A stretch of 50,476 nt of DNA, from positions 1 through 50,476 of IMG/VR virus record IMGVR_UViG_3300003635_000005; one strand, given 5' to 3'. The stretch is from a virus. Positions within the stretch are counted from its first letter, which is position 1; each line of letters begins with the position of its first letter. The notes under the pieces are model-generated. The model was not told the DNA's origin. It did no database searches and saw only the letters and a list, made by a program, of their open reading frames with translations. Shown piece by piece: positions 18,472-48,543 of the stretch. The position numbers and the translations under genes were made by a program.

Positions 18472-18779
18472 CCGGACTCTCCGCCGAGACCGCACCCACG
18501 GTTGACGACATACGGCATGACCGCGTGACTAAGTTGTGGCTCAAGTGCCCGGCGTGCCGGACCACGCACGTCCGGTGGCCAAAGGACATGGAGGCCAGCG
18601 AGGGCCTCCCGGAGAATAACCTCATTGAGGAGGTGCTTGAGTGCTACTTTTCGCACGAGTGGACACCGGACTCGTGGGAGGAGGCCGACAAGGCCGGCCT
18701 CGTGCCGGACGTGGCCAGCGAGGAGGAGACGGACCCCGCACTTGCGGAGCAATACACCGATGACGGAGACAACCAATGA
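18468..18779 (+). CDS. Small CxxC protein
   Basis: A 103-residue acidic protein with WLKCPACRTTHVRW (CxxC at about 27-30) and a single later Cys/His pair (LECYFSHEW), enough for one zinc site. ATGA overlaps tie it to both neighbours. Unknown function; possibly a nucleic-acid-binding or adaptor protein like the other small zinc proteins here. Confidence 0.5.
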   Translation: MTGLSAETAPTVDDIRHDRVTKLWLKCPACRTTHVRWPKDMEASEGLPENNLIEEVLECYFSHEWTPDSWEEADKAGLVPDVASEEETDPALAEQYTDDGDNQ

Positions 18780-19987
18780 GCGAGACCGACAACACCGACG
18801 AGACCGAGAGCACCGAGGAGGAGACACCGATTGGCACCGAGTTTGACGTGCCACCCACGGGTATGCTGGCCCTTGACCGGACGGATCTTGAGGGCAACCG
18901 TTGCGTGGTGATTGCTCACCACAACACCCGTGCCGGAGACTTTACCGTGGCCGCCACGGGCAAGACCATAGCGGAGCACCAAAGCGAGTGGGAGGACGAG
19001 GAGTGGGCCGAGGACGTTGAGCGTGCTCCCGTGGTGGACGTTGCGTATAAGGGCCGCCTTGAGGAGCGGTGGGACGAGGAGTGGCAAGAGTGGCCCGCCT
19101 CGTTGCTCACGTATCGGGTGGGCAACGAGGGCATGAGGACTTACTCTTTCCCCGTCTCGCGGCTCCTCTTTGGCCCGGAGTATGCCGAGGTCATCAAGGA
19201 GCAAGGCCGGGAGCCGGCGGACACCACCAGCGAGACGCCAGCGGATCCGGGGTTGGTGGACGTGGCGTGCAAGGAGTGCGAGTTTGAGGCCGTGGAGGGT
19301 GACACCAAAGCGGATTATGCACTCCACTTTGAGGAGTGCCCGGAGTGCGGCGGAGAGATCCACGGGAGACTCGTTGACGCCGAGGAGGGAGACCTCGTGA
19401 CGGACGGCGGACTCTATGAGGCCACCACCACCGGCATGGCGTTTGACGGGGTGGAGGTGGACCTCACCACGCGGGCCACCGAGGACGGTGCGGACGCCGA
19501 GGACAAGGCCGAAAAGGTCCATATGGATCTCAAGGCCCGCTTTCAACGCCTCGCTCAAGCGTATGAGGAGGGCCAGCACCCGGACGAGGGCACGCCTTTC
19601 ATGAGCGTGGATTGGGAAAGCGTCCTCGGCCTTGACGAGGAGGACGGTGACGAGGAGTTGATGACGGACGGCGGCACCGTGGAGAAAGCGGAGCCGGACG
19701 AGACGCTCCTCCTCACGGACGAGGGCCTCCAAATGCCCGATATGCTCCGGGGATACGTGGGCCAATTCCACGTCAAGACCGCGGACATTACGGGCCAATT
19801 CAACACCACGGACTCGGGCCTCCCGGACACCGAGTATTATGACGGCGTGATTGCGGTGTATCCCGATGACGAGGGAGATTATAACCCGCACCTCGGGCCG
19901 GGCCTCATGGAGATCTATACCACCAACCCGGACGCCAGCAAGGTGTTTGAGGTTGTGGACAAGCGCACGGAGGAGGACAATGAGTGA
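18776..19987 (+). CDS. Hypothetical acidic protein with zinc-ribbon centre
   Basis: A 403-residue protein. After an acidic leader it has a compact alpha/beta region (residues about 25-145), then CKECEFEAVEGDTKADYALHF.ECPECGGE as a C2H/C2-type zinc unit (about 165-200), and a C-terminal region rich in aromatic residues (DTEYYDGVIAVYPDD). The zinc unit with its spaced HF..C resembles the archaeal ribbon/ARM-type hybrids. Overlaps the genes on both sides. Function unknown. Confidence 0.5.
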   Translation: MSETDNTDETESTEEETPIGTEFDVPPTGMLALDRTDLEGNRCVVIAHHNTRAGDFTVAATGKTIAEHQSEWEDEEWAEDVERAPVVDVAYKGRLEERWDEEWQEWPASLLTYRVGNEGMRTYSFPVSRLLFGPEYAEVIKEQGREPADTTSETPADPGLVDVACKECEFEAVEGDTKADYALHFEECPECGGEIHGRLVDAEEGDLVTDGGLYEATTTGMAFDGVEVDLTTRATEDGADAEDKAEKVHMDLKARFQRLAQAYEEGQHPDEGTPFMSVDWESVLGLDEEDGDEELMTDGGTVEKAEPDETLLLTDEGLQMPDMLRGYVGQFHVKTADITGQFNTTDSGLPDTEYYDGVIAVYPDDEGDYNPHLGPGLMEIYTTNPDASKVFEVVDKRTEEDNE

Positions 19988-34999: not shown

Positions 35000-35212
35000 A
35001 TGTCTCGCAAGTGCCTCAATTGCGGTGCTCAAGTCACCACGCAATACGCACGAGTGTTTTCTCTTGAGGGTGAGGATGACGTGCGAGTGTGCCCGGATTG
35101 CCCGGACAAGATCCGCGGCAAGGGTGGCAAGCCTCGTGACGCACGGAGCACGCGGCGGACGGACACCAGCGAGGACGTGGACCACTCCCGCGAGACAAGC
35201 AAGAGTCTTTAA
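35000..35212 (+). CDS. Small zinc-knuckle protein, basic C-terminus
   Basis: A 70-residue protein with CLNCGAQV (5-8) and VCPDCPDK (31-34), a simple zinc ribbon of a kind I associate with small conserved haloarchaeal and halovirus proteins, followed by a basic, Arg-rich tail that could bind nucleic acid. It immediately precedes the tRNA gene. Confidence 0.58.
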   Translation: MSRKCLNCGAQVTTQYARVFSLEGEDDVRVCPDCPDKIRGKGGKPRDARSTRRTDTSEDVDHSRETSKSL

Positions 35213-35237: not shown

Positions 35238-35310
35238 ACTCCCGTGGTGTAGTGGCCAATCATACGTGCCTTTGGAGCACGTGACCCCGATTCAAATTCG
35301 GGCGGGAGGA
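35238..35310 (+). tRNA. tRNA-Gln (anticodon UUG)
   Basis: The 73 bases fold as a tRNA: acceptor 35238-35244 with 35303-35309 (an A.G mismatch at 1-72, six pairs after it), a D arm with AGTGGCCAA loop, an anticodon stem CGTGC/GCACG with loop CTTTGGA (anticodon TTG), a 4-base variable loop, and a T arm CCCGA/TCGGG with loop TTCAAAT. The discriminator is A and CCA is not encoded. The D-arm sequence is like that of haloarchaeal tRNA-Gln. It would read CAA, the almost exclusive Gln codon of this genome. Confidence 0.9.
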
Positions 35311-35424: not shown

Positions 35425-35480
35425 TATCTCACCGTCCGGTATCTTTATGGTCTCCCCTACTCAAGGAGTAGTATGGTGAG
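35425..35480 (+). promoter_or_regulatory. Type A promoter/operator, copy 3
   Basis: TATCTCAC (35425-35432), CGTCCGGTATCTTTATGG as TATA region, the CTACTC-AAG-GAGTAG hairpin with AAGGAG, and GGTGAG at 35475-35480 over the start codon. The half-site spacing is 42 bases. Confidence 0.72.
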
Positions 35481-36546
35481 CCAAACCATGTCCGATGACC
35501 GCACCGCCGACGAGATCCGTGCCGACGTGCTCCGTGCCGCACGCAACGCACTCAAGAATCACTCAAGTGACGCCACCAGCGGAGCGAGTTACAACAAGCG
35601 CCGTGCCGCGGAGAAAGCGTTTGACGCCGCCATGGCCGCACTCCGGCCCGTGCCCGTGGACGAGAGACCGGACGGCCTCGTGGAGTGCGTTGACCAACTC
35701 ACGAGTCTTGCCCGCCACGAGAGCCGGAGCAAGGCCGAGGAGGCCCTCACGGACGCCGTGGCCGAGTGCCTCACGCGGAGCATGGAGGACGAGGACGGTG
35801 AGTGGGTCCACGTGGAGGACGCCGAGGATCTCTTTGAGCGTGGTGACGAGATAACCGTGCGATACCGAGAGCACTCCGGCGGAGCCGACGAGGAGCCGGG
35901 TGAGTGGGTCAAAGTCACCGGCACCGTCCGCAAGAACGTGCCGCGTGGTGCTGGTGGCCTATGGGTCACTATTGAGGAGGACACCCACCGCGAGTCATGG
36001 CGAAAACTCCACCGCGTGCCCGGCGGCACCGTCACCGGCACCCACCCATACGGCAACCGCAAGGTCCGCAAGGGCCTCCGGGCCAAAGTCCTCCTCCCCG
36101 AGGACGAGGACGAGAGCGAGGATGACGAGGACGCCAGCGAGGAGGAGCACAAGGCCGTCACGGACGGCGGCACCGTCACCGAGGAGAGCGAGGCCATGAG
36201 CACCGTGCCCGAGTGCGTTGTGTGCCACCGGCCTCCGTGCGGACCCACCGAGGGCCTTGAGAGCGTGGACGAGTCCGCCGTGGACCCCTCCAACCGCCAC
36301 CACAACTCCAACCTCGTGGACACCAGCGAGTCACCCGAGGGCACCGTTTGGGTTTGCTCCACGTGCCGTGACGTGCTCCACGCCGAGGGGGAGACCGTGC
36401 GAGTGTGCCACCACAAACTCTCCGTCAAGGAGGAAAACCCGGACTCTTACACCCTCGCGGGTGAGGTGGCCGGTGTCCACCAGCACGTCACCGCCACCAA
36501 ACAGCACGTCCACCAGCAACTCACGGACGCCGAGGTGGATCTATGA
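35473..36546 (+). CDS. MVSQ-leader protein with SH3-like centre and HNH-like Cys/His cluster
   Basis: A 357-residue protein starting MVSQTMSDDRT. Residues about 10-95 are helical. FERGDEITVRY with WVKVTGTVRK (about 120-155) is an SH3-like segment as in the other leader-sharing proteins. The C-terminal part has CVVCHRPPC, NRHHNSNLVDTSE and WVCSTCRDVLH, whose order resembles an HNH-type zinc nuclease, though key residues cannot be confirmed. The frame is open upstream, but promoter and SD fix the start at 35473. Confidence 0.55.
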   Translation: MVSQTMSDDRTADEIRADVLRAARNALKNHSSDATSGASYNKRRAAEKAFDAAMAALRPVPVDERPDGLVECVDQLTSLARHESRSKAEEALTDAVAECLTRSMEDEDGEWVHVEDAEDLFERGDEITVRYREHSGGADEEPGEWVKVTGTVRKNVPRGAGGLWVTIEEDTHRESWRKLHRVPGGTVTGTHPYGNRKVRKGLRAKVLLPEDEDESEDDEDASEEEHKAVTDGGTVTEESEAMSTVPECVVCHRPPCGPTEGLESVDESAVDPSNRHHNSNLVDTSESPEGTVWVCSTCRDVLHAEGETVRVCHHKLSVKEENPDSYTLAGEVAGVHQHVTATKQHVHQQLTDAEVDL

Positions 36547-46122: not shown

Positions 46123-48543
46123 ATGGCTCCTCGGCGCTCCCCTCTTGACCACGCACTCCATGGGCCAGCGGACGAGGACGGTGCCGATGACTCAAGCACC
46201 GTCCAAAAGGGCACCACTCCGGGCCGTGCCTCCGGCGTGAGTGCTGGTGGATCCACACAAGGCACCGGGCAAGCCGTGGTGGACACCACGAGGCCCGGCA
46301 AGTCCATGTTTGGCCAGCAATCAGTTTTCAAGCAAGAGGTGGACCGCCGTGCCACCACCTCACCGCAAGTCTCCCGCTCCGTGCGGGCCAACGGCGGCGT
46401 GACAAAGCCGTATGACCCCGCTCTCCTCCGTGACGTGGCGGATAGTGGGCCAGCACAAGCGTATATTGACACTCTCGCGCAAGACGTTGCGAGTGCCCGG
46501 TGGAGCCTCGTGGCCCGTGACGAGGACACCGATTTGGAGGACGAGGACCGTGCCGAGTTGGAGCGCAAGTTGGAGAGCATACACCCCGAAAAGTCTTTCC
46601 GGGATATTCTTGAGCAAACGGCCCGCAATCTCCTTGAGTTGGGAGACGCCGCGTGGGTCAAGCACTACTTTGAGAATAGTGACGAGTTGGCCGAGGTGGT
46701 GCCGGTGGACTCGGCCCGGATTTTCAAGCGGGTGGACAACCACGGCCTCACGCAAGCGTATCTCCAAACCGAGTTTAGCACGTTGGACATTGGAGACACT
46801 CTTGACACCAGCGAGGTGGTTTGGTTTGAGTGGGCAAGCCGGACGGACCACGTATATGGCCACGGGCCGGTGGAGAAAGGGCTTGAGACGCTCATGCTCC
46901 TTGACGAGTTGCAACAAAAGGAAAAGAAAGATCTTGAGGAGGGTATGCCGCCGGGCATAGTCTCCGCCGCCGAGGACGCCGACAACCCGTTGCCGCCGGA
47001 CGAGTTTGATACCGTCAAGGAGGAGTTTGAGTTGCACGAGGGTGAGCGGCACCGGCTCCTCGTCACCCGCGGTGAGTGGGACTTTACGGACTTTAGCGGT
47101 AACTATCAAGAGTTGCAAATCCTTGACCGCAACAAGTTTTGGATCCACGTCCTCGGTGCGGTCATGAAAGTCAACCCGCCGTATGCTGGTTTTGACTTTC
47201 AAGAGGGCAACAAGGCTCAAAACGAGAGCCAAAAGGAGGCTTACGCTCAACGTGGGTTTAGGCAAACCCTCCGGCAAGTGGAGGAGGCAATCACGCGGCA
47301 ACTTATCCACGAGGATCTCACCGAGGAGTTGGACTTTAAATTTGAGCGAGAGCAAACCGTGGCGGAGCGCAAGGAGCAAGCCACGCTCCTTGAGCAAGCG
47401 GCCAACGCCGCCGAGGCGTGGGCCAACAATGGCCGCAACGTGACGGTGGACGAGGACGGCACTATCTCCGTGGAGCCGGGTGAGGTCACTCCCGATGACG
47501 TGGACAAGCCGGACTCGGGAGGCCCGCTTTTCGGATCCGTGGACAAGGAGGGTGTCCAAAAGGCCGTGCCACTCTCGGCACCAGCGGGTAACAACCCGGT
47601 GGGTGATGACGCCATGGGTGAGTGGCGCAAATTCCTTGCCGACATAGCGGACGAGGGAGGCATGGTGATGGACCCCGAGAGTGAGCGGACGTATCCCGGT
47701 GACGAGTTGGCTCCCACGGGCAACGTGGTGGTCTTTGGCGTGGAGCCGGAGCGTCTCCGCTCCCTCATGGAGGCATATCCCGGCGTGCAATACAACGTGG
47801 AGGAGCCGACAAGCCGAGATCCGCCGGGAGGTGACGAGTTTGAGGATAGTGAGGCCGAGTCACCAGCGGACGAGGCACCACCGGGCATGGATCTCACCGA
47901 GGACGAGGTGCTCCGCATGGACGAGATCCTTGAGGGAGCGTATAAGTCCCAAATTTGGCCGGAGAGCGTTGATGACATAGAAAAGCGGGCATGGAGCGGA
48001 GACCAATCCGTGCCGGACTATGTGTTGGAGCAAATCAGCATGGCCATTGACCGTGGAGCGGTCTTTGACGACTTTGAGACCCTCCCGGAGCGCGTTGTGG
48101 AGGAGGTCAAGAGCCTCCTCAAGGACAACCTCACGCAACCGCAAGGGTGGAGCCTTGACTCGGTGGTTGATGACTTCAAGGACGTTTTCCCCGGCGTGCC
48201 CGAGGAGCAACTTGAGACGGTGGCCCGGACGGAGACCGCCAGCGTGCTCAACACCGCACGCGAGGAGGGTTATCAATCCCGCGAGGAGAGCGGACGGTTT
48301 AAATTCAAGTGGGTGGGTCCGTCCGACAACCGGACCACGGACGCTTGCACCGAGTTGAAAGAGCGGACCAACCCGGACCACGGCGGCACTCCCGTGAGCC
48401 TCCCGGATCTCAAGCGCATGGAGCAAGAGGTCCACGCGGAGCACTTTGAAAACCTTGAGTTTAGGACTCACACAATCCACCCCAACGAGCGGCATACGTT
48501 TGTCCGACTCGCGGAGAGTGGTGAGGGAGGTGACTTGACGTGA
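46123..48543 (+). CDS. Portal protein fused to a Mu gpF/SPP1 gp7-like domain
   Basis: An 806-residue protein. Residues about 90-460 are the portal: LLRDVADSGPAQAYIDTLAQ, FRDILEQTARNLLELGDAAW, VVWFEWASRTDHVYGHGPVE, and a long helical end (RQTLRQVEEAITRQLIHEDL). From about 640 a Mu F-like domain follows, with VARTETASVLNTAREEGYQ, KWVGPSDNRTTDACTELKE and IHPNERHTFVRL near the C-terminus. These two head proteins are separate genes in many phages. The fused form would place the minor head protein at the vertex at fixed copy number. Confidence 0.8.
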   Translation: MAPRRSPLDHALHGPADEDGADDSSTVQKGTTPGRASGVSAGGSTQGTGQAVVDTTRPGKSMFGQQSVFKQEVDRRATTSPQVSRSVRANGGVTKPYDPALLRDVADSGPAQAYIDTLAQDVASARWSLVARDEDTDLEDEDRAELERKLESIHPEKSFRDILEQTARNLLELGDAAWVKHYFENSDELAEVVPVDSARIFKRVDNHGLTQAYLQTEFSTLDIGDTLDTSEVVWFEWASRTDHVYGHGPVEKGLETLMLLDELQQKEKKDLEEGMPPGIVSAAEDADNPLPPDEFDTVKEEFELHEGERHRLLVTRGEWDFTDFSGNYQELQILDRNKFWIHVLGAVMKVNPPYAGFDFQEGNKAQNESQKEAYAQRGFRQTLRQVEEAITRQLIHEDLTEELDFKFEREQTVAERKEQATLLEQAANAAEAWANNGRNVTVDEDGTISVEPGEVTPDDVDKPDSGGPLFGSVDKEGVQKAVPLSAPAGNNPVGDDAMGEWRKFLADIADEGGMVMDPESERTYPGDELAPTGNVVVFGVEPERLRSLMEAYPGVQYNVEEPTSRDPPGGDEFEDSEAESPADEAPPGMDLTEDEVLRMDEILEGAYKSQIWPESVDDIEKRAWSGDQSVPDYVLEQISMAIDRGAVFDDFETLPERVVEEVKSLLKDNLTQPQGWSLDSVVDDFKDVFPGVPEEQLETVARTETASVLNTAREEGYQSREESGRFKFKWVGPSDNRTTDACTELKERTNPDHGGTPVSLPDLKRMEQEVHAEHFENLEFRTHTIHPNERHTFVRLAESGEGGDLT

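What the first reader, a model, noticed from the sequence alone, without database searches (positions are those of the whole stretch)
35238..35310. Virus-encoded tRNA-Gln(UUG) matches near-exclusive CAA usage
Seen: a well-formed tRNA-Gln with anticodon TTG, and Gln codons that are almost all CAA in this genome. Known: GC-rich haloarchaea prefer CAG. Inference: avoidance of CAG drove Gln to CAA, and the virus carries the tRNA to read it during late translation. This gives a functional link between a DNA-level constraint and tRNA carriage.
Basis: partly seen in the sequence, partly recalled or inferred. Interest (0 to 1): 0.72.

Follow-up and report, generated by a model that had tools for sequence, protein, structure and literature searches.

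The report
Virus tRNA matches motif-forced glutamine codon
This salt-loving-archaea virus has purged so many short DNA words from its genome that glutamine is almost always spelled CAA, and it carries its own tRNA for exactly that codon; related viruses have or lack the tRNA in step with this purge, which makes it a natural test of why viruses carry tRNAs.

Summary
Window 35238-35310 (+) is a tRNA-Gln(UUG), the only tRNA gene found, and Gln codons are 345 CAA to 30 CAG. The window is a complete circular genome, a relative of Saparoviridae HCTV-2 and HHTV-2.

594 of 1828 testable 6-mers are nearly absent. CAG survives almost only as RCCAGCR; there Gln is CAG 25:1, elsewhere CAA 341:4. So motif purging, not translational preference, sets the codon.

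CAA is the codon most enriched over host genes (5.9x). The tRNA gene itself has lost forbidden words while keeping its cloverleaf.

Within the capsid-protein family, all 3 near-complete CAG avoiders carry tRNA-Gln(UUG) and none of 8 non-avoiders does; 3 of 3 independent contrasts agree, one at a syntenic locus.

Outside the family the link is not strict. Several haloviruses without CAG avoidance carry the same tRNA, one CAG-avoiding relative of another carrier lacks it, and CAA-rich isolates such as HFTV1 lack it.

Best reading: a codon-compensating viral tRNA favoured, but not required, when motif purging forces CAA. Expression, charging and host are untested.

The parts
35238..35310 (+). tRNA-Gln(UUG) gene, no intron, no encoded CCA
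   Evidence: RF00005 51.6 bits; all helices pair except 1-72 (A.G) and the innermost D-stem pair (U.U; unpaired in every sequence aligned)
35000..35212 (+). upstream 70-aa CxxC protein (DUF7563), stop 25 nt before the tRNA
   Evidence: a CxxC-type gene also precedes the tRNA locus in relatives G432 and G436
35208..35212 (+). TTTAA, 26-30 nt upstream of the tRNA: possible archaeal TATA-like element (unverified)
   Evidence: read from the sequence printed; overlaps the stop codon of the upstream gene
35473..36546 (+). downstream 357-aa ORF, function unknown
   Evidence: no Pfam match
928..2127 (+). major capsid protein, used to collect and order the relatives
   Evidence: 64% identical to HCTV-2 and HHTV-2 major capsid proteins
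46306..48543 (+). portal / Mu gpF-like fusion, places the virus next to HCTV-2 and HHTV-2
   Evidence: Phage_portal 1.3e-27; 52% and 49% identity

Best explanation
The virus has purged over a hundred minimal 4-7-mer words from both DNA strands, most simply read as long-term escape from host restriction-type defences (inferred). Because nearly every CAG context is among them, Gln is forced to CAA (shown). That raises demand for the host's minor tRNA-Gln(UUG), present as a single gene in the hosts examined (shown for proxy hosts). The virus carries its own copy of this tRNA, which supplements CAA decoding during virus protein synthesis (inferred). The gene has been rewritten to remove forbidden words while keeping its cloverleaf, so it was kept as a tRNA under the same DNA constraint (sequence shown, history inferred). 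Within its family the tRNA is present in avoiders and absent in non-avoiders (shown); it is favoured, not obligatory, because exceptions exist elsewhere (shown).
For: tRNA. Purge: CTGC 0, AGCT 0, CTAG 0, CAGG 1; 594 of 1828 testable 6-mers at <=10% of expectation against 29-38 after synonymous codon shuffles that keep protein and codon usage. Cause: RC-CAR-CR context CAG 25:CAA 1, all other contexts CAA 341:CAG 4. Demand: CAA most enriched codon over host loci, 22.9 against 3.9 per 1000; tRNA species rank 1 of 45 under a simple decoding scheme. Gene rewritten: 3 forbidden words against 8-13 in 36 host tRNA-Gln(UUG) genes and 5-15 in other viral ones; GTTCGA became ATTCAA with the compensating A53-U61, while position 53 is G in 62/62 host and 98 other viral tRNAs (I take the single other 'A' to be the window's own sub-locus L001). 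Family contrast: avoiders window, G008, G432 carry it; HCTV-2, HHTV-2, G013, G015, G016, G018, G019, G436 do not, 1 in 165 by hypergeometric count; 3 of 3 independent pairs; G432 and G436 share the upstream gene and tRNA-Leu(UAA) but only the avoider has tRNA-Gln.
Against: tRNA-Gln(UUG) is carried by viruses with CAA fractions of 0.22-0.48 and no strong CTGC avoidance (HVTV-1, HCTV-1, HCTV-5, HCTV-16, HRTV-7, HSTV-2, HATV-3). G031, a collinear relative of the carrier G009, avoids CAG (CAA 85%) and lacks the gene. HFTV1, BLv36, HRTV-4 and G032 have CAA 55-62% without it. Across lineages not collected by the tRNA, CAA density does not differ significantly (p=0.11). Only three independent contrasts exist, too few for significance; G008 was first met through its tRNA, and G018 and G436 are intermediate (CAA 46-47%). 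The host is unknown.
Confidence: 0.62

Rival explanations
1. The tRNA is general haloviral cargo that helps translation of any virus with more CAA than its host; motif purging is not what selects it, and the match to CAA dominance is largely coincidental.
For: tRNA-Gln(UUG), often as the only tRNA, occurs in Druskaviridae, Mincapvirus and HATV-3 with ordinary CAG usage. All carriers have at least 8 CAA per 1000 codons and all 12 lineages below 8 lack it.
Against: Within the capsid family absence and presence follow the avoidance in 3 of 3 independent pairs, including one syntenic locus.
Confidence: 0.22
2. The tRNA replaces host tRNA-Gln destroyed by an anticodon nuclease or toxin during infection.
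For: This role is proposed for phage tRNAs of mycobacteria and enterobacteria (PMC10264068).
Against: The anticodon loop CUUUGGA is identical to that of all aligned host tRNAs, whereas that hypothesis predicts loop changes; no tRNA repair gene was found among the ORFs scanned with Pfam.
Confidence: 0.07
3. It is an attachment-site copy of a host tRNA-Gln gene.
For: Host-like tRNA-Gln(UUG) genes lie at the ends of provirus-like contigs G006 and L017.
Against: The best host match among 391 haloarchaeal genomes is about 84% over 76 nt; no integrase was found in scanned ORFs; the paper's list of families with integrases does not include Saparoviridae (PMC8651126).
Confidence: 0.03
4. Reverse causality: the tRNA came first and translational selection drove Gln codons to CAA.
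For: Codon and tRNA match.
Against: Where DNA context tolerates CAG the virus uses it 25:1, and CAG is also depleted out of frame and on the other strand.
Confidence: 0.03

Closest known systems
Codon-compensating phage tRNAs (codon compensation hypothesis)
   Same: tRNA decodes a codon enriched in the virus and rare in the host
   Different: the mismatch comes from short-word purging, not from a G+C difference; the tRNA gene is itself purged
tRNA-Gln(UUG) of HVTV-1, HCTV-1, HCTV-5, HCTV-16, HRTV-7, HSTV-2, HATV-3
   Same: often the sole viral tRNA, same anticodon and anticodon loop
   Different: those genomes do not avoid CAG; their tRNA genes hold 5-15 of the window's forbidden words
Palindrome avoidance in HF1-group haloviruses (PMC7230728) and motif purging in archaeal tailed viruses (PMC8651126)
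   Same: complete loss of short motifs such as CTAG, read as escape from restriction
   Different: here many non-palindromic words too, enough to change codon usage; a link to a tRNA was not found in the passages read
Saparoviridae HCTV-2 and HHTV-2
   Same: capsid, portal and tail genes, gene order
   Different: CAA only 3% and 8% of Gln codons, no tRNA gene

Membership tests
tRNA (RF00005), tRNA-Gln(UUG) | covariance model score and cloverleaf | tested here: met
   51.6 bits against cut-off 29; stems 93% paired over 16 aligned tRNA-Gln with 76 double-sided changes, 0 of 500 shuffles
tRNA (RF00005), tRNA-Gln(UUG) | anticodon UUG and Gln-type sequence features | tested here: met
   A1, A73 and the loop CUUUGGA are invariant in the alignment; 1-72 is A.G instead of A-U
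tRNA (RF00005), tRNA-Gln(UUG) | transcribed, processed and charged | not testable with these tools
   only a TTTAA 26-30 nt upstream
codon-compensating viral tRNA | decodes a codon enriched over the host | tested here: met
   CAA 5.9x, rank 1 of 45 tRNA species; host proxy only
codon-compensating viral tRNA | presence tracks codon bias among relatives | tested here: met
   within the capsid family 3/3 against 0/8 and 3/3 pairs
codon-compensating viral tRNA | presence tracks codon bias across all haloviruses | tested here: inconclusive
   p=0.11 without tRNA-selected records; exceptions both ways
codon-compensating viral tRNA | improves decoding or yield | not testable with these tools
   needs an infection experiment
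nuclease-resistant phage tRNA | anticodon-loop changes against host | tested here: not met
   loop identical to hosts
tRNA attachment site | near-identity to a host tRNA plus an integrase | tested here: not met
   best about 84% in 391 genomes; no integrase among scanned ORFs (not every ORF scanned)

The most novel reading that the evidence does not exclude
Escape from DNA-sequence-based host defences reshapes the codon usage of a virus so far that it selects for gain or retention of a matching tRNA gene, which is then itself edited, with compensating base pairs, to obey the same forbidden-word rule.
Probability: 0.55. Interest if true: 0.75.

Novelty: new variant of a known kind. Interest (0 to 1): 0.6.

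Why it matters
Why viruses carry tRNAs is an old open question, and codon compensation is usually tied to differences in G+C content. Here the codon shift has an identifiable DNA-level cause, an internal control (the tolerated context) and sister viruses with and without it, so cause and consequence can be separated and tested.

Tried and rejected
Simple CAG avoidance was rejected: 222 of 242 CAG lie in RCCAGCR. Translational selection for CAA was rejected by the context test. Reading TTCAAAT in the T-loop as a purge mark on its own was dropped, since HVTV-1 has it without avoidance; the A53-U61 pair is the specific mark. A host search by 20 kb of the window against 391 haloarchaeal genomes gave only tRNA and coding-region similarity and no clear spacer, with only the top candidates scored per genome. 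The intron-containing tRNA-Gln called in fragment L169 looks spurious. Relatives by baseplate protein in IMG/VR: none. RF00005 alone can miss intron-containing tRNAs, so ARAGORN with introns was used as well.

Full report
What is there. The window has a 99-base end repeat and is a virus record. Capsid, portal, tail and terminase proteins place it beside HCTV-2 and HHTV-2 of the Saparoviridae. It holds one tRNA gene, tRNA-Gln(UUG), at 35238-35310 +, 25 nt after a small CxxC gene (35000-35212, DUF7563). A TTTAA lies 26-30 nt upstream; whether it is a promoter is not shown.

Codon bias. Gln codons are 345 CAA and 30 CAG in 71 called genes. CAG is also rare out of frame and on the opposite strand, so the cause is in the DNA. 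It is not CAG itself: CTGC, AGCT and CTAG are absent, CAGG occurs once, and many 5- and 6-mers are missing. In the first 35 kb, 594 of 1828 testable 6-mers occur at 10% or less of a base-composition expectation; after shuffling synonymous codons, which keeps the proteins and the codon counts, the number is 29-38. CAG is tolerated as RCCAGCR (222 of 242). In Gln codons with that context the virus uses CAG 25 times and CAA once; in all others CAA 341 and CAG 4. RCCAACR is not itself forbidden (44 occurrences). This separates DNA avoidance from translational preference.

Demand. Against pooled coding sequence of haloarchaeal loci above 58% G+C, CAA is the most enriched of all codons (22.9 against 3.9 per 1000), and under a simple archaeal decoding scheme tRNA-Gln(UUG) ranks first of 45 tRNA species. 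Other enriched codons such as TAT, TTT and ATT share a G34 tRNA with the host's favoured C-ending codon and need no extra tRNA (general knowledge of archaeal decoding). The host genomes examined gave one UUG gene each in nearly all cases. CAA density is higher in the structural region (27.1 against 18.8 per 1000).

The tRNA gene obeys the same rule. Forbidden words were defined from the window with the tRNA masked: 114 minimal words. Host tRNA-Gln(UUG) genes hold 8-13 of them, other viral copies 5-15, the window's copy 3. The near-universal GTTCGA of the T-arm became ATTCAA, with the paired change to A53-U61; position 53 is G in all 62 host tRNAs and 98 other viral tRNAs checked. All stems pair apart from 1-72 and one D-stem pair that no aligned sequence forms, with many two-sided changes across the 16 aligned sequences. 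The closest host gene in 391 genomes is about 84% identical. The gene was therefore kept folding while its letters were changed.

Comparative test. Relatives were collected by capsid and tail-tube proteins, not by tRNA, and near-complete records were read in full. CAA fraction is strongly split in this family. Near-complete avoiders (CAA 0.81-0.92): window, G008 and G432, all with tRNA-Gln(UUG); G008's has a 43-nt intron in the anticodon loop. Near-complete others: HCTV-2, HHTV-2, G013, G015, G016, G018, G019, G436, none with it. On the capsid tree the avoidance label changes three times, and all three independent pairs agree (too few for significance). G432 and G436 share the upstream CxxC gene and a tRNA-Leu(UAA); only the avoider G432 has tRNA-Gln between them. 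Caveats: G008 was first seen through its tRNA, and G018 and G436 are intermediate in CAA.

Limits. In a wider survey the tRNA occurs without avoidance in Druskaviridae, Mincapvirus, HATV-3 and HGTV-1, and is absent from CAA-rich HFTV1, BLv36, HRTV-4 and G032, and from G031, which avoids CAG and is collinear with the carrier G009. All carriers have at least 8 CAA per 1000 codons and no lineage below 8 carries it (10/21 against 0/12, p=0.004; 6/17 against 0/12, p=0.026 without the window and tRNA-selected records; the cut was chosen after seeing the data), but a rank test without those records gives p=0.11. So the tRNA is favoured by CAA demand, not required.

Verdict. A real tRNA gene and a real, DNA-driven codon shift. 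Codon compensation is the likeliest role, with good support inside the family and exceptions outside. Restriction escape as the cause of the purge is inferred from published motif avoidance in haloviruses (PMC7230728, PMC8651126); host, methylome, expression and charging are unknown.

Noticed in passing
window, whole: Extreme word purge: 48 of 512 5-mers and 511 of 2080 6-mers absent in the first 35 kb; GATC occurs at expected frequency but CGATC and GATCA are absent or nearly so, so it is tolerated mainly as RGATCY; RCCAGCR is far above expectation.
   Followed up: partly
HHTV-1 (KC292025; L243-L245): An isolate with an equally extreme purge (656 low 6-mers) but opposite codon effect: CAA 3%, no tRNA gene.
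   Followed up: no
G008 (IMGVR_UViG_3300048114_000266) 35600-35716 -, and G010 85543-85678 +: Viral tRNA-Gln(UUG) genes with introns in the anticodon loop, like those of several haloarchaeal hosts.
   Followed up: partly
window 35238-35310 and viral tRNA-Gln of HVTV-1, HCTV-1, HCTV-5, HCTV-16, G002, L013, G009: Position 1 is always A but 1-72 is unpaired (A.G, A.A or A.C), while host genes have A-U; may matter for archaeal Gln-tRNA formation.
   Followed up: no
L154, L159, L176: Fragments of close relatives (L154 capsid 98% identical, L159 80%) with CAA 86-100%; no tRNA found in these short pieces.
   Followed up: no
G006 18760-18833 - and L017 12223-12295 -: Host-like tRNA-Gln(UUG) at contig ends, suggesting proviruses that use this host gene as attachment site.
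   Followed up: no
G031 (IMGVR_UViG_3300010222_000009) 1-56 and its far end: Contig starts with the 3' part of a tRNA (probably Thr) whose last bases recur near the other end: looks like a provirus with its attachment repeat.
   Followed up: partly
window, scanned ORFs: No methyltransferase was found among the ORFs scanned with Pfam, while HCTV-2 is annotated with several; not every ORF was scanned.
   Followed up: partly
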